From assembly GCA_036939355.1 (NCBI GenBank), contig JALLAP010002454.1:1-11422 (forward strand): 11,422 nt of DNA, written 5' to 3'. The notes beneath the pieces were generated by a model that ran no database searches, had not been told where the DNA came from, and worked only from the letters and a program-made list of their open reading frames with translations. This document shows, in pieces, positions 688-11,422 of the stretch. The position numbers and the translations under genes are program-made. This stretch comes from Thalassiosira profunda. Its lineage: Eukaryota > Bacillariophyta > Thalassiosirophyceae > Thalassiosirales > Thalassiosiraceae. The number at the start of each line of letters is the position of its first letter. Position 1 is the stretch's first letter.

Positions 688-1452
688 TCAGCACTCGTTC
701 ACTTTCTGCCTCGCTGCGTGCACCAAATCCCTCTCTTCCGAAGACAGTCCCCAAACCGGCTGTGCGTCGTTTCCAGAGCAAATGTTAGGATAGAAACATA
801 GATTTGGCGGCAAATCAGAGCCAGATCACAACGCACCTCTCCCTCCACCTCCAAACGGTTGAGGCAGCTCATCACATCTTCGCTCGTCATGATCTTCTTG
901 ATCTTCGAACTGATCTCCAACGATTTCCCAGTGACGCCACTTTCTGAGCCTTCTTTTGCCTCCTCCAACTCGGCATCCATTTTGCTGATTTCAGTCATCA
1001 CCAGAGTGAGATTCTCCACATCAGCGGCCAGGGCCAACATTTCGGGCCGATGCTCTGTTTCCAGCTTGGACACACGAGCGCCCCCCGATCCATAGAATCC
1101 CCCCTGTCCCTCGCTTGCTTGGCCTGCATGTTATAACGTTGTGGAAATGAGAGACGAGCACATTGCAAACACGAGATGTATCTTCACACAAATCTCACCC
1201 CCGGAGTACTGTCGCGACAATTGAGAGACCAAGTTGCGCATGTGAGATATGAGCGGTGTCAATTGCAATGCACGCCAACAATTGCAAATATTCACTCACC
1301 GTAATGCTCTCGCCATAATCGGATGAGAACGCCCTCGACGACACGCTCACATTCAACGCCGGGACGGCAGTCCGGGCAGGCCCAGCCACACTAGCCCGGA
1401 CGACCGCCGAGGTCGTCGCGCGCGCAACAGAGGGCGCGATGCGGTTCCACAT
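688..1452 (-). CDS. Mitochondrially targeted small coiled-coil protein, three exons
   Basis: Exons on the minus strand are 1452-1300 (51 codons, ATG at 1452-1450), 1103-837 (89 codons) and 759-688 (23 codons plus TGA), giving 163 aa. The first intron (1299-1104) has a GTGAGT donor and a GACAG acceptor. The second (836-760) has GTGCGT and CGCACAG. Both are phase 0. The N-terminus (MWNRIAPSVARATTSAVVRA...) has Arg, Ser, Ala and Thr but no acid. It ends in a typical presequence site, SSRAFSSDYGES, so matrix targeting is likely. The mature part starts GGFYGSGGARVSKLE and is rich in heptad-like Glu/Lys/Leu up to about residue 140, suggesting a coiled coil. It ends PVWGLSSEERDLVHAARQKVNEC. I cannot name the family. 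The first acceptor was chosen because it keeps the frame; the stronger-looking ACATGCAG at 1124 would not. The gene is divergent from the PPR gene, and the two may share the region 1453-1744. Confidence 0.6.
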
Positions 1453-1744
1453 GTTCACTTATTCGCCCTGGCTTTTGACGGGCTCGTCACCTTCGAGTTG
1501 AGGTGCACTGACTCGGTGAAATGAGGAGCGTTTTGCTTTTTGCTTGTTCTGACGCCACCAGGAATATCGGGAAAGATACACCGGAGATGCGGGAAGGTTC
1601 TCCTCTCCTCTTGTTGATTCTCGAGAATGGCCCCTCACCCGTGGCCATTCATTTTCCCACACTACTTCCGCGCCGCCCGCCCCGCCCCGCGGCCCAGCCT
1701 AGCCCCGCCGCCGCGTCCTGCCGCAAAGACGCCCACCTACAAAT
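1453..1744. promoter_or_regulatory. Divergent intergenic region with GC-box-like tract
   Basis: The 292 bp between the start of the minus-strand mitochondrial protein gene and the PPR start contain a GC-rich stretch at about 1669-1712 with repeated CCCGCC/CCGCCCC. That composition would fit GC-box promoter elements serving one or both genes. No TATA box stands out. An ATG at 1627 opens another frame overlapping the PPR start. It has no recognisable product and is at most an upstream ORF. Confidence 0.35.
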
Positions 1745-2263
1745 ATGAAGGATACTCACCGAAAGAAGCGGCGCAAGCGATCCCGGAGTCAGGGGGAGCG
1801 GGACGACCGCGATGGTGGCCGCACTCGGGAGCCATCGTCGGCGGAGCCCCCATCGGTGCATCAGAAGCAGACGCAGCAAACCCAGATGGAAAGACAGCGC
1901 CGGCACCAAGAGGCGCTCGCCCTCTCGCAGCAGCTCCGCCAGCTGTCGTCGAGGAAGCTTCTGAAGGAGTGCCTCGACCTTTATCGCTCTCCTTCCAACG
2001 ATAACATTCGCGATGCCCACCATGGCAGTATCGTGGTGGACTGCTGCGCGAGGTGTGGCGATGTGAAGGAGGCGGAGAGGACAGTTCATTCAATGCTGTC
2101 GAAGGGTAAAAAGGCGGGGATGAATGAGGATGTGGTGCCGTATTTTTGGGAGCAGCACAAGCGATTCTCTTACAAATCAGTGCCGATCCAGGCGTGGACG
2201 GCGCTTCTAAAGGGATATGTGCATGCGGGGATGATGGCAAAGGCGGACTCGCTGTTCCAATAT
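1745..2263 (+). CDS. PPR protein, 5' part, cut by transposon
   Basis: Translation from ATG 1745 begins MKDTHRKKRRKRSRSQGERD, a strongly basic N-terminus, followed by a Gln-rich helical stretch. Two helix-turn-helix repeats of pentatricopeptide type follow. One is near residues 79-118 (DAHHGSIVVDCCARCGDVKEAERTVHSML). The other begins near residue 146 (QAWTALLKGYVHAGMMAKADSLF). PPR proteins bind RNA and usually act on organelle transcripts; that role is family knowledge, not shown here. The host frame ends at Tyr 173 (codon 2261-2263). The next two codons, CCA TAG, belong to the transposon terminal repeat and stop translation at 2269. The frame resumes at 11034-11422. The gene is broken in this haplotype unless the element excises. 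Its 3' end lies outside the window. Confidence 0.85.
2260..2263. repeat. Left target-site duplication ATAT
   Basis: ATAT directly precedes the terminal inverted repeat and recurs at 11034-11037 directly after the other end. Because the motif is palindromic, a 2-bp duplication (AT or TA) with a slightly longer inverted repeat cannot be excluded. All these readings restore the same host sequence. Confidence 0.75.
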
Positions 2264-2273
2264 CCATAGTGAG
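2264..2273 (+). repeat. Left terminal inverted repeat
   Basis: CCATAGTGAG is the exact reverse complement of 11024-11033. Counting the flanking ATAT, the mirrored match is 14 bp. It provides the in-frame TAG at 2267-2269 that ends the PPR reading. With the following T it also makes a consensus splice donor, GTGAGT, at 2269-2274. Confidence 0.85.
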
Positions 2274-2617
2274 TTTTTGTTGGGGCTCCTGCAGAATGAT
2301 GCAATCAACGTTGCATCATTTCGACGAAGCGGCGTAAAGTGCAACCCATGCGATGATCTGGCCCTGCCAGGCCCAGAGGGGGGTCCTCTTGAGAGGCCAC
2401 GAAAAAAATTTGCTCCAGCTCGTTCACGGCGGCTCAGAGGGGCGGTTTTGATGTTCAGCGATATTTGGCGAACGTAGGAATAGTATAGTATCAATTTTGA
2501 CCCTCAATTGCCGACGCGTGTCCCCTCTTCTCATTCTATCGACCTCGATCAACACGGACCGGTGCGCAATATGAACATGAACGTCGTCGTCCTTCTCTGT
2601 CGGGCGGCGGCGCCGTC
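2274..2617. promoter_or_regulatory. Left subterminal region and presumed transposase promoter
   Basis: This stretch has no convincing gene. It holds the left palindrome at 2295-2320, a GC-rich part around 2356-2395, a run of seven A at 2402-2408, and AT-rich sequence around 2476-2500 (AATAGTATAGTATCAA) that could include core promoter signals. ATGs at 2571 and 2577 open a frame that runs to 2882 and overlaps both candidate transposase starts. Its product is a Leu/Ala/Arg-rich shadow, and if transcribed it would act as an upstream ORF. Confidence 0.35.
2295..2320. repeat. Left subterminal palindrome
   Basis: Arms AATGATGCAA (2295-2304) and TTGCATCATT (2311-2320) are exact reverse complements around the spacer TCAACG. 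The centre is about 44 bp from the left end. The same arms recur four times near the right end, so this is a shared element-specific motif. A likely role is a binding site for the transposase or another dimeric protein (inference). Confidence 0.85.
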
Positions 2618-5600
2618 ATGGGCTGCCCCTGCAGTCAACAGCAGTGTTTCGGGAGCAGTCAAAGCGTTGAGCCATCGCCTTCACTCAACGGCGCCGCTCG
2701 TCGACCCAACCCGCTCGTTGAACTGGTTGCCATTGTTGGGCCCAGTTCGCTCTTGCCGTCGTTTGCAACTATGTCCAATCGACCTGCTCGCCGCCTTGCT
2801 GCCAGGCAGAAGCGCAGCTATGCCGAAACCGGCACAGACGACGAGGAGGAGGAGGAGGAGGAGGAGAGCGAGGAGGAGGTGATCGGACCGCTCGAGGAGG
2901 AGGAGGAGGAGGAGGAGGACGAGGACGAGGACGAGGAGCTGCAGCAGGACGACGACGACGACGACGACGACGAGGAGGAGGAGAACGTCTATCATGACGC
3001 GTCCGATGGATCGGAAGACGGCGGAGGTCGAGCAACTCAAGGCGCAGCTCGTCGTGGTCGTGGTGCGGCAGCTGATCGTGGCGGCCGTCGCGGTGGGAGT
3101 GGAGGCAACGACGGTGAGGAGGACGACGAGGACGAAGTGGACGACGACGACGGCTCTCTGTTCTACTTTGATGCCAATGAGGACGTCGAGGATGACGAGG
3201 ACGATGCCAATGAGTCGGTTGGTACTCTTCCAATGGAAGAAGATGAAGAAGGCGAAGAACAGTGGGAATACGGAGATGAGGAAGAACTCAACTCGGACAA
3301 AGAGAAGAGGCATTGGAGAGGCATGCAATGGGTTGACGATCTAAAGCGCTTCGTGTACGATGACCACGAGGGTCGCCGTGGTGATCTCAAGGACGTGCCG
3401 GATGTTACCGATTGGAGGAAAGTGCACCCTCGAAACATGAAAGAAATCCGTCTTTCCTTTAATGGTGCACGAGAGGGAGCGATGGCATTGCTTGCGGCGG
3501 AAGTCAAGGCCTTCAAAGACAGGCTCGACGAGCTGGGGATAGATCAGACATCTGATGGGCTGTTCGACTACTTTTTTGGAGAAGAGAGCCGCTTTGCCAC
3601 GGCCGTTAAGAGGGAGTTGGACCTCTCAAATGAGGACTTCTACCGGTTTCTCGCCACATTCTACTTTGCGGCTGAATTCCGGGTGCCCCCAAAGCGCCTT
3701 CAAGAGCACGGAAGGGTCAACTTTAAAGGTTTCATGAAGTCAGATAAGTTGAACGCCATCTGGAAGAAAATCGGAGTTGCCGGGAAGGACGGGGCGCAGT
3801 CGAAGCTCTGGGAGGTGGTGGAGACTGCAATCAACGAAACATGCCGGGAGCTATTCCTGCAGGGGAAAGGGCGAGTGCCCAACCTCAAGATTGCGTGGGA
3901 CGACGACAAGGTCCACTTCCAGTTCAGCACGGCAGCTGTAAGAAAGGACAAGGACAACCTTTGTGGACTGAAGGCGTGCCAGCACGTGATGAGCAATTGT
4001 AGGGGTGTGACAATCGACACAGCAGTCGCCCCGGCGTCTGGCTTTCCTCTGTCCTTCTCTGCACTGCGGCAAGGAGAAGACCACACGTCGAACTACCAGC
4101 GAATGTTCAGGTTTATGTTCTCCCACCTGTTCTCTCGCGAGGGTTGCATTAGAACGGCGCTCCACGGGGTACAGTTTTGCTCCGATCGCGGATACTGGAC
4201 GGCTGCGCTCATCCTCCTCATCCTCTCGTACGGAGGCACAGTCTTTGGGACTATCAAGCGATCGTACTGGTGCCCTCTGACCTACGACCAACAACTGAAA
4301 CGAAACGATAAGAGAGAGAAGATCGACAAGAAGTATGGCCGCAGCGCAATACTGGCCTTTTCACGGTGGGGCGATGGCCTGTTGAAGGTGATCGGGTATC
4401 GCAGCGGTACCGGTGCTGTATCTCTGGCGATGACCAGCGACTGTGAAGATGACGAGCCTCAACAGTACGACTTCTGCATCAAGAACAATGGCGAGGCCAA
4501 GTGGTACAAGTCGAACCTGTCGCAGAAGGAGCGTGATTTGAAGGCGTTCCACGAAATGGTGCTCAGGGACGACGGGATCCGGAAGGACATCCTCCACCAC
4601 CTATTCCTCCTGACATGCAATACCGTGATGATGCTGACGTGCCACGATCTCTGCCAAGCGTGGTTCCTCCTCCGCATGTTTTCCTTCACATCGTCTTCGG
4701 CAGAGAATACTCTTCGCCACGCGGCACCATTCATTTCAACGGATAGCGATGAACACGCTTCTTTTGCGAATGTCCTCGACTTTGCTGGCCTTGGCAAACA
4801 TTTGAGTGAACCAGATCTCAACGAGAGCGACAGCAGCACAGATGGGGCGGGCGGCGCGCCAATCGATAGCGGACTAGTGCATTCGATGGTCAATTCGATG
4901 CGAGCGGCGTCCTCTCGAACCAGGGCATCGGTCGAGGAATGTGCCCGGAATGCAGCACGAATTGAGAACGAGCTTGACGGGATGGGTTCGTCGAAGTTGG
5001 AGGCGCTGTTGACAAAGCTTGGTTTCTTGTGCCCAACTATCGCAAACATGACAGATGACACAAGGAGGAAGAAGCTGAAAAAGTGGATCAAGTCCATCCG
5101 GGATTGCGCCGACGGCCTTCCCGACTCTGAGTCCGACGAGTCGAGCGTGGACTCGTCTGAATCAACGGCGCCACCTGTCATCGAGTACAATTTCCCGTAC
5201 AATATCTTGAGCGCCAAAGAAAACGAGGAGTTGCTTAGGAGCCGTGTTGGCGGAGACGCTATCAGCAATGGCACCGTACCCGGGCCCGTCAACAAGCCAA
5301 CGAAGAATGCCCAGCGGGTAGCAGCAATGCACTTTCTTGACAACGATCGTGACTTTGTGTCTCCTGCTTCCTCGACTGACATGGGCTCTGGCAATAGCGA
5401 TCTACGGGCTGCCATTGTAAAAGGAGCTGTTGGAAAGGCGTTCCTCAAGCCTTTGGAGAAGCAGGAGAAGGCAGAATCGAGGCTTGGGCATCAGAACGAG
5501 CCGCTCTACATCCAGCAATACCTCGATGATAGCAGAGAGGGTCGTGTGCCCGGTATTGAGCTCGTTGGCATTACCCGGTGTGGCATGGCGATGCAGAAGG

Positions 5601-7246
5601 AACGGCCTTACGTCCGGGACTCTGCCGACGCGATGGCATTTGAAGAGAAGGACGTTGAGTCGCTGCCGAGTGACGACGAAGGCTCCGAAGACGACGCGTC
5701 GGATGCTTTCGATCGAATCAAAAGTCACATGGTCGAGTGCAAGTGCAGATCAGGAGCGGGGTACAACGGATCCTTCGCGAAGGCTCTGCGAATTCAGAAA
5801 AAGGTGGCCGAGCTGGGGCTGAATGCGAAGCCAACGGATCTCATTGAAGGCAAGGCTGTCTACGTGCGCGTGTCCTCTTCCCAACGGACTCTGCTGCGTG
5901 AGCTGGTTCCTAAAGCCAGCGAGCTGATCCAGGCCATGCATCATGCGTTCACATACGGCCGGGACACAACCACTTTACTCGTCGGGAGTCCTGAGGGAAA
6001 AGTCCTGTATGGCATTGTGATTACCTTCGAAGCCGAGCTCCTGAAAGACTACGGTGTGGCGCTCGACTACCTGTACAGCAATGGCTTGAATCTATTCTGG
6101 CAGGACGACATCGATGCTTTGCCGCTTGATCACATCGAATCTATTCTCATGAGCGATCCCAAGTTGAAGAAGAAGTACCAGCTGGACGATTTTATGACCG
6201 CTCTCTTGGTCTGGCGCGCGACGATTCCCGGGAAAGATCACAGCCCCAAGTTTCCCATTCCTTTCTGCGATATGCTTCTGCCAATCGAACATGCTACTTG
6301 GAATGTCTTGAAGGGCGGTTCAGACACTGTGACGAGATTTACCTGGAACTGTCTCCCGGTGCTTCCGATCAAAATGATTCAGTGTGCCGTCGTTGCTCGG
6401 TACTTCCAGTGCCTTGCTGTTGTATTCCATCGATCGAGGCAGCATGTTACTGGAAGCAAATCGCCTGATGTCCTTGTCGACACGCTTCGAAGTGTGCGTG
6501 AACGAAACAACCAGCGAATTGCTTTCCACGACACGCTGAAGTATGTCGCCAATCGTCTCCTCGAAAAGGCTGAAAAGCACAGAAAGACTACTGGGCCCAA
6601 GCGTACGACGAGCCCAGTCAAATGGGCAAAAAAGGCTGCTGCTCGATTCCACGTCAACAACCGAAAGAGGCGATTCGAGCGAGATCACTCTGTTCTTGGA
6701 GGAGTCGGAATGACTGGAGTTACTCCATTTGGTCGAGGAAAGGTGAAGGCATCGGTGGCGGAACACGAAAACTACCCGGCTTTTATGGATCGCAACAATA
6801 ACTGCACCGGATGTGCCGCTCGCCTCTATGCTCCGAAGAAGGACAAGAGCGGCGAGTTCACGAAAGACACGCGTAATTGCGACCTTTGCAAAACGCGTGG
6901 GGTGAACTGGTTCTGCTATGGTTGCAAGCGGGCCCTCTGTTTTGACCTGGACCGTAGCGCGGATTTGATGAAGCTTATGAAAGATGACGACGAAAGGAAA
7001 AGGATCCAACGTGACTTCCCTGCGCTTGCCGCTCTTGGCAGAGGAGATGCGCCTGCATTTTATTGTGACATCGGGGAGATCGGGGGGAAGCCTATCTTCG
7101 TTGGCAGGAGTTGCTGGCATCTTGCACACCCGCAACACCTCAACGGTGGTGGCAACCCAGACTCTGCGGACGATCCAGATGGGCAACTATCGATGATAGC
7201 TGCTTCCTCGGTATCAAGCCCGCCTCGCAGCCGACCCCGTCTATAG
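2618..7246 (+). CDS. piggyBac-type transposase with YqaJ-like nuclease domain
   Basis: A single open frame of 1,542 codons from ATG 2618. An in-frame ATG at 2771 (MSNRPARRLAARQKR, A at -3, basic) is at least as likely a start and gives 1,491 aa. Residues below use the 2618 start. Residues ~75-230 are extremely acidic. A piggyBac DDE_Tnp_1_7 core follows: the entry motif (LFDYFF, near 315), Asp428-430 (KIAWDDDKVHF), Asp523 (FCSDRGYW, then GTIKR) and Asp608 (MTSDCEDDE). A YqaJ/lambda-exonuclease-like PD-(D/E)XK domain covers about 950-1160: GHQNEP (Glu961), DSADAM (Asp1004), VECKC (Glu1040, Lys1042). The piggyBac KGG-D motif comes only after it (KGGSD, 1232-1236). A basic stretch, ~1302-1350, leads to the zinc-binding end: C1396/C1399, C1421/C1424, C1433/C1436/C1441, C1499/H1501/H1504. 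It should cut and join DNA in the nucleus, and all expected acidic residues appear present. Homology is by eye. There is no intron or internal stop, so it may be active. Confidence 0.88.
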   Translation: MGCPCSQQQCFGSSQSVEPSPSLNGAARRPNPLVELVAIVGPSSLLPSFATMSNRPARRLAARQKRSYAETGTDDEEEEEEEESEEEVIGPLEEEEEEEEDEDEDEELQQDDDDDDDDEEEENVYHDASDGSEDGGGRATQGAARRGRGAAADRGGRRGGSGGNDGEEDDEDEVDDDDGSLFYFDANEDVEDDEDDANESVGTLPMEEDEEGEEQWEYGDEEELNSDKEKRHWRGMQWVDDLKRFVYDDHEGRRGDLKDVPDVTDWRKVHPRNMKEIRLSFNGAREGAMALLAAEVKAFKDRLDELGIDQTSDGLFDYFFGEESRFATAVKRELDLSNEDFYRFLATFYFAAEFRVPPKRLQEHGRVNFKGFMKSDKLNAIWKKIGVAGKDGAQSKLWEVVETAINETCRELFLQGKGRVPNLKIAWDDDKVHFQFSTAAVRKDKDNLCGLKACQHVMSNCRGVTIDTAVAPASGFPLSFSALRQGEDHTSNYQRMFRFMFSHLFSREGCIRTALHGVQFCSDRGYWTAALILLILSYGGTVFGTIKRSYWCPLTYDQQLKRNDKREKIDKKYGRSAILAFSRWGDGLLKVIGYRSGTGAVSLAMTSDCEDDEPQQYDFCIKNNGEAKWYKSNLSQKERDLKAFHEMVLRDDGIRKDILHHLFLLTCNTVMMLTCHDLCQAWFLLRMFSFTSSSAENTLRHAAPFISTDSDEHASFANVLDFAGLGKHLSEPDLNESDSSTDGAGGAPIDSGLVHSMVNSMRAASSRTRASVEECARNAARIENELDGMGSSKLEALLTKLGFLCPTIANMTDDTRRKKLKKWIKSIRDCADGLPDSESDESSVDSSESTAPPVIEYNFPYNILSAKENEELLRSRVGGDAISNGTVPGPVNKPTKNAQRVAAMHFLDNDRDFVSPASSTDMGSGNSDLRAAIVKGAVGKAFLKPLEKQEKAESRLGHQNEPLYIQQYLDDSREGRVPGIELVGITRCGMAMQKERPYVRDSADAMAFEEKDVESLPSDDEGSEDDASDAFDRIKSHMVECKCRSGAGYNGSFAKALRIQKKVAELGLNAKPTDLIEGKAVYVRVSSSQRTLLRELVPKASELIQAMHHAFTYGRDTTTLLVGSPEGKVLYGIVITFEAELLKDYGVALDYLYSNGLNLFWQDDIDALPLDHIESILMSDPKLKKKYQLDDFMTALLVWRATIPGKDHSPKFPIPFCDMLLPIEHATWNVLKGGSDTVTRFTWNCLPVLPIKMIQCAVVARYFQCLAVVFHRSRQHVTGSKSPDVLVDTLRSVRERNNQRIAFHDTLKYVANRLLEKAEKHRKTTGPKRTTSPVKWAKKAAARFHVNNRKRRFERDHSVLGGVGMTGVTPFGRGKVKASVAEHENYPAFMDRNNNCTGCAARLYAPKKDKSGEFTKDTRNCDLCKTRGVNWFCYGCKRALCFDLDRSADLMKLMKDDDERKRIQRDFPALAALGRGDAPAFYCDIGEIGGKPIFVGRSCWHLAHPQHLNGGGNPDSADDPDGQLSMIAASSVSSPPRSRPRL
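2838..2985 (+). repeat. GAG/GAC triplet repeat encoding acidic tract
   Basis: Near-pure GAG and GAC codons encode runs of Glu and Asp in the transposase N-terminus, broken by a short EEVIGPLEE segment and LQQ. Triplet slippage probably lengthened it. On the opposite strand it gives poly-Leu or poly-Arg frames that are not genes. Acidic tails of this kind often bind histones or mimic DNA, but nothing here proves that. Confidence 0.85.
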
Positions 7247-7248
7247 CA

Positions 7249-7664
7249 CCGGGCGCGGCGTTGGACTTCCGGGGCGCCGGGACGAACGACTTGGCGTTAT
7301 TACCGGGCGAGGTGGCCTTGCCGGCGCGGCGTTGGACTTCCGGGGCGCCGGAACGAACGACTTGGCGTTATTACCGGGCGAGGTGGCCTTGCCGGGCGCG
7401 GCGTTGGACTTCCGGGGCGCCGGAACGAACGACTTGGCGTTATTAGCCGACGCCGTTATTAGCACCGGGCGCGGCGTTGGACTTCCGGGGCGCCGGAACG
7501 AACGACTTGGCGTTCCCGGGCGAGGTGGCCTTGCCGGGCGCGGCGTTGGAGGACTTCCGGGGCTCCGGGACGAACGACTTGGCGTTCCTGGGCGAGGTGG
7601 CCTTGCCGGGCGCGGCGTTGGAGGACTTCCGGGGCTCCGGGACGAACGACTTGGCGTTGCCGGC
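7249..7664. repeat. Minisatellite, six ~72-bp units
   Basis: Six tandem units can be followed by the word GCGGCGTTGG, starting at 7255, 7326, 7398, 7471, 7540 and 7612, with spacings of 71, 72, 73, 69 and 72 bp. Each unit also holds a GACTTCCGGGG word, ACGAACGACTTGGCGTT and most of GGCGAGGTGGCCTTGCCG. Units 5 and 6 share an extra GAG after GTTGGA and CTCC in place of CGCC, so the array falls into an older-type (1-4) and a younger-type (5-6) part. It begins three bases past the transposase stop and lies in the gap before the BRCT gene. Both strands have long open frames, but the uneven period shifts the frame between units, which argues against coding. Confidence 0.9.
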
Positions 7665-7908
7665 GCTTCTATTACATGCACAGCAATACTTATCGTAAAC
7701 AGTATTAAGTTGCACGCTGGTGAAATGCGCCCTCGATGCGCTTGTCCTACTGCCACGTCATAGCCTGCAATTGAAGGGACATCATAACATGTGCAACGCT
7801 TCGCTGGGTATTTAGTTGATGGAATTGGTATCTAGTATTGGCGCCTCAAATTTCGTTAGATGAAGCGCGCCAATTGCTGTTGTGGCCCCGCGAAACAGAG
7901 AGTGCAAG
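7665..7908. promoter_or_regulatory. Leader/promoter region of the BRCT gene with two short uORFs
   Basis: This AT-richer stretch separates the minisatellite from the BRCT gene. It contains an uORF at 7819-7863 (MELVSSIGASNFVR) whose stop overlaps the start of a second uORF at 7860-7934 (24 codons) through ATGA. The second passes over the first BRCT-frame ATG at 7909 and ends 13 bases before the next one at 7948. No clear TATA box is visible. If the transcript starts upstream of 7819, these uORFs would dampen translation (inference). Confidence 0.35.
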
Positions 7909-10079
7909 ATGTGGGCACTGCAAGCGCCTCATAAAGCAAAGCAGCAAATGCCATCGCGTCGACCAAAGAGAGAGCGCCGTGCGCGCCGTTCCGGCCCTGG
8001 CTCCGGCATCCAAGGAGCGCTGAGCATTCTGACAAACAAGCGCTCGCCCCCGAAGAGCAGCAAGACCTCGAGCAATGGACCCCGTATTGTATTGACTGGA
8101 TTCGATGGCGTTGTCCGCGATCAGCTCGTCAAGGTGAGCGTTGATTCGTCTTCTAGGTTATTTGTGGTTCTCTCCCTCCGCTGAACTTGTTGTTTAGAAA
8201 ATCGAGACGATTGGAGGCAACGTTGTCGAGACGTGTGGCGATGATGGTGTCTGCGTCACTGCCACGGATGACCAGAACAACGTCACCGGGCCTCGCCGGC
8301 TCAAGTTGTTGAATGCCCTGTGCGTCAATAGCAATATTGTCTCGAGGGAGTGGATTGACGCGTCTACGGAGAATGGCGCCTTCCTTCCAACCAAGGCGTA
8401 CTCCATTCCAGTGTTGATCGCCACGATTGAGCGCGGAATTGTCGCACGTGACCGTGGTGGATTGTTCGAGGGCTGGGCGTTCTATCTTCATAACTCCGTT
8501 TCTGCAAAGAAAGGCAACCCATCGAAGAAGGAACTAGCCACTCTCTTCGACAACACTGGTGGCAAGAAGGTGGATGCCGGAGCCATTGGCAGGCTGTTGA
8601 AAAGTGGCGGCGACGTGTCCAAGTTGATCATCATCGCCGAGGAAGGCGTGGATCTGCCAAAGAAGGTGTCGGAGGCTATCCAGCTAGGAGCGAAACAGCT
8701 GCGGTGCCCCAAGTTCGTCGAAGCAGTGGCAAAGCAGCTGCTGTCCTTCGAGCACCTCTTTTCTCGCCCCACCCATGGAACGATCTCCGGAATCGCCCAC
8801 GCCCACGACGCCATCTCCGGAATCGCCCACGACGTTGCCGCGTCCGGCGCCATCTCCGGAATCGCCCACGCCCACAGCAATGTCCCAGAATCTTCTTCCG
8901 ATGCGGAATCGAGCAAGGACGATGACGGTGTCAAATGTAAGTGATGCATTTTCGATTAGGCCAGCTGCGTGTAGCAGATGACTTACCTGAACGGCATTTC
9001 CCTGCAATACCACAGCCAATCTGACGACGCTCAAGAAGCTCCATCTCGAGGCGCCCCGCGAGAAAGCCGCCCGGGAGGCAAAGGAGGCGAGGACCACACG
9101 CATGATGGAGCTTGCGGGGCTCTTAAAGAAGAAGAAGTCCGAGATCGCCAACCACGCCGAGGGCCTCGACGCGACGCTGTCCAAGATGACCGAGCGCCAA
9201 GACGAGGATTTGGCCCTCCTCAAGGAGCGTCAGAAAATCAAGATGGCCGAATACATAGCGCAGCACGACCACGAACTCGTCGTTGCCACCACAGCCCACT
9301 CCAAGGAGCGCGAAGGTTTCGTAGAGAGTCACACTAAGCGGGGGGTTGCTCTCTCTGCCGATCGCTATGCTCTCATGAAGGAGCTTCTCGAGCTAGAGAA
9401 CGAGGACCAGGTAAGTATCGAGGTGTGCATGTTTGCGTTGCATACTGATATTTCCACTCACCTTTTCGCCACATCACCAAAGCCTCGTCCTCGTCCAGGG
9501 CGCGATCTCCTACTAGGGACGTTCTTCCTTCCCCACCTGCAGAGGAACACAACCGTCGGACTCGACGACATCCTCGAGCTGGGAGAGGTACTCCTTGAAG
9601 TTTACTCCGAAGGTCCGGATCGTGGCAAGAAGTTTGCCCGTATGGCTCGCTTTGAGGGTGACCGTGGCACGGTGATCTTCCTGGCCGATGCTCCCAAAGC
9701 GGGCGAGGGAATGTTTGGAAACGCTGGAAACCAGCCCATCGTTGTGTGGCAGGCATTCAACGAGAAGCATGTCCAGGCAGGCGGCACTACCATCAAGGGC
9801 GCCCAAGATCCGCTGAAGTCCACGGGGTCGCGCCGCTATCACCTCCATTTCGAGAGCAACGAGGACGTCGAACGTTTCCTGGATCTCCTCGGAATCTCCC
9901 TCGAAGAATGGAACGACCCCGGCGGCAGGTTCTGTCCCCAGACGTCCATCGCGCCCGCCAACAAGCACGAGCTGAACGACAGTGACATGGAGGTCGAGGC
10001 CCAGAACAAGACCATAACCGAGGAGGATGCGGAGAAGCTGTTTGGCTACGACCCCTACGAGGTATCCCAGAAATATTGA
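7909..10079 (+). CDS. Tandem-BRCT coiled-coil protein, transposon-borne, four exons
   Basis: Exons are 7909-8133, 8198-8936, 9016-9410 and 9543-10079 (stop TGA). The introns have donors GTGAGC, GTAAGT, GTAAGT and acceptors TTTAG, CCACAG, CTGCAG in phases 0, 1, 0. The product is 631 aa. Residues 14-28 are basic (SRRPKRERRARR), a likely nuclear signal. BRCT-1, about 59-135, has the Thr63-Gly64 and Lys111 (RRLKLLNAL) positions that bind phosphate in tandem BRCTs such as MDC1, and the conserved Trp127 (SREWIDAS). BRCT-2, about 155-250, lacks the usual late Trp. Three ISGIAH repeats follow at 271, 281 and 294, then a Ser/Asp-rich linker, a long coiled coil (~323-440) and an unrecognised C-terminal domain (~460-590). 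It probably binds phosphorylated repair or chromatin partners as an adaptor. The family role is known; its job in the element is inferred. The start could instead be ATG 7948. It lies downstream of the transposase on the same strand, inside the terminal repeats. Confidence 0.8.
8783..8869 (+). repeat. Three in-frame ISGIAH coding repeats
   Basis: The 18-bp word ATCTCCGGAATCGCCCAC occurs exactly at 8783-8800, 8813-8830 and 8852-8869, with offsets of 30 and 39 bp. Both offsets keep the frame and encode ISGIAH each time. It sits just behind BRCT-2 in exon 2 of the BRCT gene and may be a short binding motif or simply linker expansion. Confidence 0.85.
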
Positions 10080-10176
10080 GTTGCTTGGATGGCTGGGGGC
10101 GGTCGGAGAAGTGGAAGCCAGAAGCTTCCTATTGGGCGAAGTGAAAAGAGAGGTGCCTTATTAGAACAGGCCTTAA

Positions 10177-10182
10177 AATAAA
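10177..10182 (+). terminator. Poly(A) signal AATAAA of the BRCT gene
   Basis: AATAAA lies about 98 bases after the BRCT stop codon, in an otherwise non-coding stretch, which is the usual range for a cleavage and polyadenylation signal. It is a 6-bp match, so chance remains possible. Confidence 0.5.
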
Positions 10183-10266
10183 GTAGAATCAATGAGACAG
10201 ACTCACCTGTCGTCTCCATTTCCTAGACGACGCGCCCCCCTCGCCCGTTCCGGCGCTCGCAGCAAC

Positions 10267-10497
10267 CTACTCGATGCTCACCTCGACGCACTCCTCGTTG
10301 CTCGCGTTGGATCCCGCCTCGATGCTCGTGTCGGCGCGCCCCTCGTCGACGCGCCCCACGTCTGACCCGGCGCTCCGTGCTTGCTCCCGCCCGTCGTCCG
10401 CAGCGGGCATATCCACTTTTGGTGAAACAATACACTTTTGGGGCACACCGGCGGCCAAATCGTCGGCAGACGAGCCGTTCTTGCGGCGGCGATGAAT
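10267..10497 (-). CDS. Possible exon of a small minus-strand gene
   Basis: On the minus strand a splice acceptor TTATAG (10498-10503) opens a phase-0 frame beginning IHRRRKNGSSADDLAAGVPQK and running 76 codons to TAG at 10267-10269. Internal donor GTGAGC at 10281-10276 could end the exon at 10282 instead. A consensus GTAAGT donor lies further upstream on that strand, at 10616-10611, in a matching phase after a short Gly/Arg-rich frame. The product is hydrophilic, basic first and then acidic, with no known domain. It would converge on the BRCT gene. GC-rich sequence easily yields open frames, so this is weak. If real it is a third gene of the element. Confidence 0.25.
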   Translation of the reverse strand: MHRRRKNGSSADDLAAGVPQKCIVSPKVDMPAADDGREQARSAGSDVGRVDEGRADTSIEAGSNASNEECVEVSIE

Positions 10498-10503
10498 CTA
10501 TAA

Positions 10504-11023
10504 CCGCTTCTGGACGCGGGGGACGGCGCGGAGTGGATATGGGGCAGCAGGAGCCGCTAGTAGCGGCGATCTTTGTGTCAGACAAAGATCCAAAAGATAC
10601 GGTTATCTACTTACGTAAGTACGTATGTAGGCGATTTTTCCTCTTCGTCCCCCCCTTTGCCCCCCCCATCCTGCAAAGTTGATGAAAACCACCCACCAAT
10701 GCCCACCCTGCCTCCCTATTCCCCGAATTATTCATACATAGCACATTGGAGTCATTTCGTAATATTGATGAAATGATGCAACCATCGTTGCATCATTCTG
10801 GATGATGCAACCATCGTTGCATCATTTCTGGCAACAATATCCCCGGAAGTAAAAGTCCCCTGATGGAGTGAAAAACACCTTCTGGGACCTTTTATCATCA
10901 TATGTTGGCCTATTGTTATGCTCCCAAGCAAGCATCACTCAATTGGAGCCATTTTGCAAATTGATCAAATGATGCAACGATCGTTGCATCATTTTGGGTG
11001 ATGCAACGATCGTTGCATCATTT
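10504..11023. other. Right subterminal region of the transposon
   Basis: Apart from a possible upstream exon on the minus strand (about 10611-10670), I see no gene here. The region turns AT-rich toward the end. It holds pyrimidine runs near 10636-10668 and two copies of an 82-bp module (10748-10829 and 10945-11025), each with two palindromes. The outer module copy runs directly into the terminal repeat. Confidence 0.7.
10748..10829. repeat. Inner copy of right-end module with two palindromes
   Basis: The module starts GGAGTCATTT, ends CATCATTTCT and contains palindromes 10772-10797 and 10801-10826, each AATGATGCAA-type arms around CCATCG; the second left arm begins GATG instead of AATG. It matches 10945-11025 with about nine differences by eye. 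The spacer CCATCG is not itself palindromic, unlike CGATCG in the outer copy. Confidence 0.85.
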
Positions 11024-11025
11024 CT
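10945..11025. repeat. Outer copy of right-end module with two palindromes
   Basis: Contains palindromes 10968-10993 and 10997-11022 with spacer CGATCG, so each is unbroken through the centre (at least 22 bp for the second). The centres are about 30 bp apart, close to three helical turns, and the outermost lies about 24 bp from the element end. The last two bases of the module overlap the terminal repeat. Likely binding sites for the transposition machinery (inference). Confidence 0.88.
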
Positions 11026-11033
11026 CACTATGG
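11024..11033 (-). repeat. Right terminal inverted repeat
   Basis: CTCACTATGG is the exact reverse complement of 2264-2273 and is followed by ATAT and then PPR-coding sequence. It does not contain an AG that could serve as a splice acceptor, so the element is not neatly removable as an intron. Confidence 0.85.
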
Positions 11034-11037
11034 ATAT
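11034..11037. repeat. Right target-site duplication ATAT
   Basis: Second copy of the ATAT at 2260-2263. Joining the left flank through one ATAT to CTTTGCGG at 11038 continues the PPR frame with no shift. Confidence 0.75.
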
Positions 11038-11422
11038 CTTTGCGGCACGCTCAAACCAAAAGCTGCTTCTGGTGATGGCACAAGCAATGGCACAAGTGAG
11101 AACCGCAAGCGCAAGAGGGAAGGGGCGGAGAATAGATATGGGCCCAACGTTCGCACGTTGAATACGCTCTTGCGGGGCTGCCTTTGGACCGCGACCACAC
11201 TCAATCCCGATGGGATACCCGACGGGCAGGGCGCGCCAAGGAACGAACTGGTGGGAGGAGTGGTAACGGCAGAGCGGGCATGGTCCCTTACCGAGGACAG
11301 CATCGCTCGCGACGCTTCTTCCTACGAGTATTACATCTCACTGCTATCCCAGTCTTTGCAGTGCCAACGCGCCGAGGAATGTTTGCAGAAGATGAGGAGC
11401 GAGTTTGGCCTCCCCGACAACG
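11038..11422 (+). CDS. PPR protein, 3' part, continues past window
   Basis: Open from the element boundary to the window edge in the frame CTT TGC GGC ACG, with no stop in 385 nt. It has no start of its own, because it is the continuation of the gene that begins at 1745. A Lys/Arg-rich linker (SENRKRKREGAENR) is followed by PPR-like helices NVRTLNTLLRGCLW and, later, DASSYEYYISLLSQSLQCQRAEECLQKMRSEFG. The first matches the usual PPR pattern of an Asn-Thr-Leu-Leu helix. An uninterrupted frame with intact PPR motifs means few or no disabling changes since the insertion. The gene is partial at the window edge. Confidence 0.82.

What the first reader, a model, noticed from the sequence alone, without database searches (positions are those of the whole stretch)
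2260..11037. Precisely bounded 8.77-kb multi-gene transposon splitting a PPR gene
Ten-base terminal inverted repeats, a flanking ATAT duplication and exact restoration of one host reading frame together define both ends to the base. The two PPR pieces lie 8.8 kb apart and each looks incomplete alone. An annotation pipeline would likely call two unrelated fragments or a giant intron.
Basis: partly seen in the sequence, partly recalled or inferred. Interest (0 to 1): 0.9.

Follow-up and report, generated by a model that had tools for sequence, protein, structure and literature searches.

The report
Diatom transposon with two-nuclease transposase
An 8.8-kb piece of DNA bounded by inverted repeats splits a diatom-type gene exactly at an ATAT; it is likely a jumping gene whose main protein is predicted to carry two different DNA-cutting enzymes in one chain, which would change how such elements cut themselves out.

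Summary
Element 2264-11033 (8,770 bp) has 10/10 inverted ends (CCATAGTGAG) between two ATAT copies; joining the flanks with one ATAT restores an open PPR frame, and 15 of 15 aligned homologues (of 35 found) cross the junction without a gap. It was found once in its 21.8-Mb genome. The surprise lies inside. The 1,542-aa ORF is predicted to be a distant piggyBac-like transposase with a lambda-exonuclease-like PD-(D/E)XK nuclease nested between catalytic Asp 2 and Asp 3. No Pfam model finds either enzyme in this protein, but a relative in the same genome (C628) passes curated cut-offs for both piggyBac DDE (PF13843) and YqaJ nuclease (PF09588), and has its own ATAT flanks, CC-starting TIRs and subterminal palindromes. 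Four of five related transposases found in this genome carry the nuclease residues. Precedents put such a nuclease beside (ISL2EU) or downstream of (KolobokE) other transposases; ten paper searches showed none nested in a piggyBac-type one. The nuclease's role (likely second-strand cutting) and Asp 3 are inferred. The spliced BRCT accessory gene has no detected homologue. New variant of a known kind.

The parts
1745..2263 (+). 5' part of the split host PPR gene (up to and including the left ATAT)
   Evidence: Pfam PPR 1.5e-10; 35 homologues for the joined protein
2260..2263 (.). left copy of the ATAT target-site duplication
   Evidence: sequence; frame restored with one ATAT
2264..2273 (+). 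left terminal inverted repeat CCATAGTGAG
2296..2319 (.). left subterminal quasi-palindrome ATGATGCAATCAACGTTGCATCAT (predicted binding site of the Cys-rich domain)
2618..7246 (+). transposase ORF, 1,542 aa (a second in-frame ATG is at 2771)
   Evidence: 7 homologues at 41-50% identity
3899..3901 (+). predicted catalytic Asp 1 (D428, IAWDDDK)
4184..4186 (+). predicted catalytic Asp 2 (D523, SDRGYW)
5462..6124 (+). lambda-exonuclease-like PD-(D/E)XK nuclease domain (predicted); E961 (5498), D1004 (5627), E1040 (5735), K1042 (5741), Q1105 (5930)
6323..6325 (+). predicted catalytic Asp 3 (D1236, KGGSDT)
   Evidence: motif in the relatives, aligned with C68 MGNVD
6800..7141 (+). C-terminal Cys/His-rich finger region
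   Evidence: sequence; weak zf-B_box E 0.018, below cut-off
7252..7682 (.). six head-to-tail copies of a ~72-bp G+C-rich repeat (62-100% alike) between the two genes
7909..8133 (+). accessory gene, predicted exon 1
8198..8936 (+). accessory gene, predicted exon 2 (completes the BRCT domain begun in exon 1)
   Evidence: BRCT_2 27.2 bits for the exon-2 frame alone, 37.5 bits spliced
9016..9410 (+). accessory gene, predicted exon 3 (borders of intron 2 are one of 12 open choices; GTAAGT donor chosen)
9543..10079 (+). accessory gene, predicted exon 4 (ends at stop)
10773..10825 (.). right subterminal palindromes 1 and 2
10969..11021 (.). right subterminal palindromes 3 and 4, ending 2 bp before the right TIR
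11024..11033 (-). right terminal inverted repeat
11034..11037 (.). right copy of ATAT
11038..11422 (+). 3' part of the split host PPR gene, running off the contig

Best explanation
An 8,770-bp element with perfect 10-bp inverted ends lies between two copies of ATAT inside a diatom-type PPR gene, and it is likely a cut-and-paste DNA transposon whose main protein is predicted to be a piggyBac-like DDD transposase with a lambda-exonuclease-like nuclease domain nested between its second and third catalytic aspartates. Shown: the ends, the ATAT copies, the restored host frame, the conserved nuclease residues, and a relative in the same genome with both domains above curated cut-offs. Inferred: the RNase H-like active site (D428, D523, D1236) nicks the 3' ends and joins them to the target with a 4-bp stagger over a palindromic tetranucleotide, as piggyBac does at TTAA, here at ATAT; the Cys-rich C-terminus binds the subterminal palindromes to bring the ends together; the nested nuclease cuts or trims the non-transferred strand or the flanks at excision, a TnsA-like share of labour. 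The BRCT protein would act at the break or its repair. Removal of the element with one ATAT would leave an intact PPR frame.
Confidence: 0.7

Rival explanations
1. The nuclease is real but lies downstream of a complete DDE domain, as reported for KolobokE, so nothing is nested; the third catalytic residue is before the nuclease.
For: [quoted passage not shown] The DDE half is not resolved by structure prediction. One acidic position between Asp 2 and the nuclease, D507 in A1 numbering, is Asp in 8 of 8 family members and Glu in C763.
Against: Of the three Asp that are invariant between Asp 2 and the nuclease in A1 (D507, D558, D627), D558 and D627 are lost in C763 and in C68, and D507 does not line up with an acid in C68 (an Asp is one place off), all read by eye. 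A WN-x(2)-KGG-[SG]-D motif follows the nuclease in the window protein, in 6 of 6 homologues that reach it (P0007 ends before) and in C763; C68 has WNKFMGNVD. Kolobok makes TTAA duplications and has RR termini; here ATAT and CC.
Confidence: 0.17
2. The nuclease does not serve excision; it is an exonuclease that resects broken donor or target DNA so that repair restores or copies the element (copy gain).
For: The closest folds are lambda-Exo-type exonucleases, which are processive 5'-3' enzymes (recalled); lambda-Exo-like nucleases are reported in two other transposon groups, ISL2EU and KolobokE; the BRCT domain of the second protein points to repair (inference).
Against: The predicted position at the insertion-domain site, which in piggyBac contacts the excision hairpin, favours a role at the ends; only one copy was found here.
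Confidence: 0.25
3. The nuclease is a structural relic or target-binding module with no cutting activity.
For: The piggyBac insertion domain is described as binding DNA, not cutting it; no activity is shown here.
Against: The catalytic E-D-E-K-Q set is among only 11 invariant columns over seven sequences of four divergent families, which argues for retained catalysis.
Confidence: 0.12
4. The feature is an assembly chimera or a large intron rather than an insertion.
For: The window is a whole 11.4-kb contig of a 1,366-contig assembly; no second allele is seen.
Against: Both junctions fit one ATAT duplication, perfect inverted ends and an exact frame, which a chimera would not give. No GT...AG at the borders; the predicted introns of the accessory gene are 64-132 bp.
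Confidence: 0.03

Closest known systems
piggyBac superfamily (T. ni piggyBac, PF13843)
   Same: Predicted DDD triad with G-G-x-D at Asp 3, Cys-rich C-terminal finger, palindromic internal repeats inside the ends, 4-bp palindromic duplication, restorable target; a same-genome relative passes the PF13843 cut-off
   Different: ATAT instead of TTAA; TIR CCAT; protein of 1,542 aa; 713 residues between Asp 2 and Asp 3 against 127 in the canonical copy C924 and 101 in piggyBac (D346-D447); predicted nested nuclease; second gene
KolobokE
   Same: A DDE transposase with a lambda-exonuclease-like PD-(D/E)XK nuclease
ISL2EU
   Same: DNA transposon with a DDE transposase and a YqaJ exonuclease, AT-rich target
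   Different: Harbinger-related transposase, YqaJ on a separate ORF, 2-bp AT duplication, TIRs that usually start GG
Tn7 TnsA/TnsB
   Same: Division between a PD-(D/E)XK nuclease and an RNase H-like transposase (recalled)
   Different: Bacterial, two proteins (or end-to-end fusions), needs further Tns proteins (recalled)
piggyBac-like elements listed in diatoms (P. tricornutum, T. pseudonana)
   Same: Diatom hosts; one uncharacterised element 'weakly related to piggyBac' with a T. pseudonana homologue (PMC2806351, passage); 65 PiggyBac entries listed for Phatr3 (PMC5859163, passage)
   Different: No nuclease domain or ATAT target is mentioned in the one passage I saw of each

Membership tests
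piggyBac superfamily | TTAA target-site duplication | tested here: not met
   ATAT at both ends; ATAT again in relative C628
piggyBac superfamily | TIR terminal motif CC[C/T]T (as given in PMC2872659, passages) | tested here: not met
   CCAT here, CCCA in C628; only the first two C agree in both
piggyBac superfamily | PF13843 DDE domain | tested here: not met
   Not matched by the window protein or listed for any of 8 family members; met by relative C628, 25.5 bits
piggyBac superfamily | DDD triad with G-G-x-D at Asp 3 | tested here: inconclusive
   Motifs present and partly profile-supported; fold of the DDE half not resolved
piggyBac superfamily | N-terminal helical DDBD | tested here: inconclusive
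piggyBac superfamily | C-terminal Cys-rich domain | tested here: inconclusive
   CDLC...C-x2-CK...C pattern in the 4 of 7 homologues that reach it; only sub-threshold finger hits
piggyBac superfamily | palindromic internal repeats inside the TIRs | tested here: met
   Five quasi-palindromes, one left and four right; none in 200 shuffles, with a pattern made from the copies themselves
YqaJ / lambda-Exo PD-(D/E)XK nucleases | fold | tested here: met
YqaJ / lambda-Exo PD-(D/E)XK nucleases | catalytic E, D, E-x-K, Q | tested here: met
   Invariant in 8 of 8 family members and in the 7 of 7 sequences from four families aligned
YqaJ / lambda-Exo PD-(D/E)XK nucleases | match over the Pfam PF09588 cut-off | tested here: not met
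   Window: none; 2 of 8 members, best E 0.003; C628 over cut-off
Kolobok / KolobokE | TTAA duplication and 5'-RR termini | tested here: not met
   ATAT and CC; definition
Kolobok / KolobokE | nuclease downstream of the DDE domain | tested here: inconclusive
   Asp 3 predicted after the nuclease, not proven
ISL2EU | 2-bp AT duplication, GG TIR start, YqaJ on its own ORF | tested here: not met
   4-bp ATAT needed to restore the frame, CC start, one ORF; definition
Tn7 TnsA/TnsB | TnsA-type 5'-strand cleavage | not testable with these tools
   needs biochemistry

The most novel reading that the evidence does not exclude
A eukaryotic one-chain counterpart of TnsA+TnsB: an ATAT-targeting relative of piggyBac in which a lambda-Exo-like nuclease has taken the insertion-domain place inside the RNase H fold and cuts the second strand, replacing the hairpin step while keeping seamless excision.
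Probability: 0.3. Interest if true: 0.87.

Novelty: new variant of a known kind. Interest (0 to 1): 0.62.

Why it matters
piggyBac is valued because it excises without a scar, a property tied to its TTAA hairpin. A set of relatives that use other short targets and carry a second nuclease in the chain would give natural variants with which to ask what fixes the target and whether the hairpin is needed. It would be a third transposon lineage (after ISL2EU and KolobokE) joined with a lambda-Exo-like nuclease, suggesting that such a nuclease solves a recurring problem of eukaryotic cut-and-paste elements.

Tried and rejected
Rejected: giant intron (no splice signals); assembly chimera (frame, duplication and TIR all fit); 2-bp AT duplication (breaks the PPR frame); ISL2EU and Kolobok membership (ends and duplication differ); a WGR/PADR1 domain in the accessory protein, my first guess by eye, not supported by Pfam.

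Led nowhere: IMG/VR and GTDB prokaryote scans with A1 (13 and 35 pattern stretches, none a relative); PDB sequence search with A1 (best E 0.29, unrelated) and with the nuclease alignment A6 (best a 29-residue piece of mimivirus R354 at E 0.19); accessory protein against 5.8 billion proteins (none at E <= 0.001 among the 7,993 candidates scored, a capped list); ends of the C763 relative (no convincing TIR with duplication); second structure model for the DDE half; the generic scan for the ends of C628 and C68, whose best hits were internal palindromes, so those ends were placed by the outermost repeats; Asp 3 pieces and the N-terminal half of C68 against Pfam (none). An HMM of the window family's DDE half against C628, C68 and C924 with 3,000 shuffled decoys ranked C68 first at E 0.0033 (its best piece, however, is the stretch after Asp 2, not the triad; first decoy 0.045) and did not list C628 or C924. 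The transposase search also scored a capped list of 7,990 candidates. Only 15 of the 35 PPR homologues were aligned. The profile tests used subsets: 5 of the 7 homologues, and, 4 of 7, each with the window protein and C763; the nuclease alignment A6 used the window, 3 of 7 homologues, C763, C628 and C68. On ATAT in print: of 3 papers listed, I looked at passages of PMC2872659 (ATAT seen only inside primers) and searched PMC4625184 (0 whole-word occurrences); PMC7913693 was not opened.
Full report
WHAT WAS CLAIMED AND WHAT IS THERE. The window is a whole contig (C1279, 11,422 bp) of a 21.8-Mb, 1,366-contig genome. Positions 2264-11033 form an element with identical 10-bp inverted ends CCATAGTGAG, flanked by ATAT on both sides. 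Because ATAT is its own reverse complement the visible inverted repeat is 14 bp. A pair with a 4-bp flank repeat and a 10-bp perfect TIR arises in 2 of 300 shuffles of the flank regions, so the ends need support from elsewhere, and the host gene gives it. The left flank codes for a PPR protein from 1745 (PPR 1.5e-10) that meets a stop at 2267-2269 inside the element; joined to the right flank with one ATAT it reads on for 301 residues to the contig end. A search found 35 homologues; the three that name an organism are Skeletonema dohrnii, Chaetoceros tenuissimus and Ditylum brightwellii, all diatoms (recalled). Of the 15 that I aligned, 15 run through the junction (…LFQY|LCGTL…) without a gap and 14 continue into an NVRTLNTLLRG-like motif. 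A 4-bp duplication restores this frame; a 2-bp one would not.

COPY NUMBER. The left end, the right end and the exact 14-mer were found nowhere else in the assembly (the tool calls its counts lower bounds), and no empty allele was found. The transposase frame is open and the TIRs are identical, so the insertion is likely recent (inference).

RELATIVES IN THE SAME GENOME. Searching the genome with the window protein found C763; with PF13843 found C924 and C628; with the C628 protein found C68 at E 0.0026. PF13843 and PF09588 do not ring in the window, C763 or C68 in these searches. C628 is the key: its 1,296-aa protein passes the curated cut-offs of both PF13843 (25.5 bits, residues 286-472) and PF09588 (26.4 bits, residues 692-868). 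Its DNA shows the same architecture as the window element: ATAT, CCCACCCGAT (10 of 10), two palindromes of the AACCCGGAATCTAG kind at each end, 858-6317. C68 carries the same motifs (DDDK, DRGY, SPDG…EMK, WNKFMGNVD) and likely ends CCGTAGTCT flanked by only 3 bp, CTA, at 2899-8505; it hits no Pfam or PHROG model. C763 has the motifs, a PHROG RecE hit at 9.2e-5 and no detected ends. C924 is a canonical piggyBac-type protein (99.8 bits) with a PHD finger, 127 residues between Asp 2 and Asp 3, no YqaJ or RecE hit, and likely CTAG-flanked ends. So four of the five related transposases that I found carry the nuclease residues; ATAT flanks two of the three of these whose ends I could place.

HOW FIRM IS THE piggyBac LINK. 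Profile comparison ties the window family to C68 over Asp 1 to Asp 2 (score 68.0; best of 150 shuffles 29.4), and to C628 weakly (28.1 against 23.9); over nuclease and Asp 3 to the C628/C68 pair at E 5.1e-7. The Asp 3 block alone ties to C68 (0 of 200 shuffles reach it, though the best has 26.3 against 26.4) but not to C628 or C924. A second model, of the DDE half, stayed poor and is inconclusive. The nuclease E, D, E-x-K and Q are invariant in all 8 family members and among 11 invariant columns over seven sequences of four families. I therefore call the protein piggyBac-like and do not file it as piggyBac: TTAA, the CC[C/T]T motif and a direct PF13843 match were tested and not met.

THE SECOND GENE. 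Exons 7909-8133, 8198-8936, 9016-9410 and 9543-10079 give a 631-aa protein; intron 2 was one of 12 open choices. Splicing raises the BRCT score from 27.2 bits (exon-2 frame alone) to 37.5, which supports intron 1. Nothing like the whole protein was found among the candidates scored and its C-terminal part was found once in the genome. Inside C628 and C68 the lists of ORFs of 200 aa or more show no second gene, apart from one frame antisense to the C68 transposase.

MECHANISM. In piggyBac the CRD dimer binds a palindromic internal repeat, the insertion domain interrupts the RNase H fold after strand 5 and contacts the hairpin, and G444-G445 precede D447 (PMC7351741; passages seen). The window element has palindromes just inside the ends, a predicted insertion between Asp 2 and Asp 3, and KGGSD. 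The most economical reading is that the nested nuclease handles the non-transferred strand or the flanks at excision, but this is inference. That paper explains TTAA preference by a bond between the first T and the last A; ATAT has A first and T last, so target reading must differ (inference).

PRIOR ART. ISL2EU has a separate YqaJ ORF (PMC4482050, passages; PMC9179366, passage); KolobokE has a lambda-Exo-like nuclease downstream of its transposase domain (PMC9587614, passages). P. tricornutum and T. pseudonana have elements called weakly piggyBac-related (PMC2806351, passage) and 65 PiggyBac entries are listed in P. tricornutum (PMC5859163, passage). The listings of ten paper searches and the passages of eight papers that I looked at showed no nuclease nested in a piggyBac-type transposase and no ATAT-targeting piggyBac relative; subscription papers and Repbase entries were not searchable, so this is a weak negative.

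Noticed in passing
L021 (C628:1-10000), 854-6321: Second ATAT-flanked element, 5,460 bp, one gene, with both PF13843 and YqaJ above cut-off.
   Followed up: yes
L027 (C68:1-10000), 2899-8505: Third nuclease-bearing element; its right end lies directly after the stop codon of an FKBP-like gene (by eye), flanks share only CTA.
   Followed up: partly
L010 (C763), 2507-7498 minus: Relative with two long frames that meet at one point, likely an intron; no ends found, perhaps old or domesticated.
   Followed up: partly
L022 (C924), 2837-6779: Canonical piggyBac-type element with a PHD finger and CTAG flanks, not TTAA, with CGTCCCGGGACG palindromes inside both ends.
   Followed up: partly
window 7252-7682: Six G+C-rich ~72-bp tandem repeats between the two genes of the element, function unknown.
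   Followed up: no
window about 700-1453, minus strand: Likely a host gene with a mitochondrial-type leader, divergent from the PPR gene (by eye).
   Followed up: no
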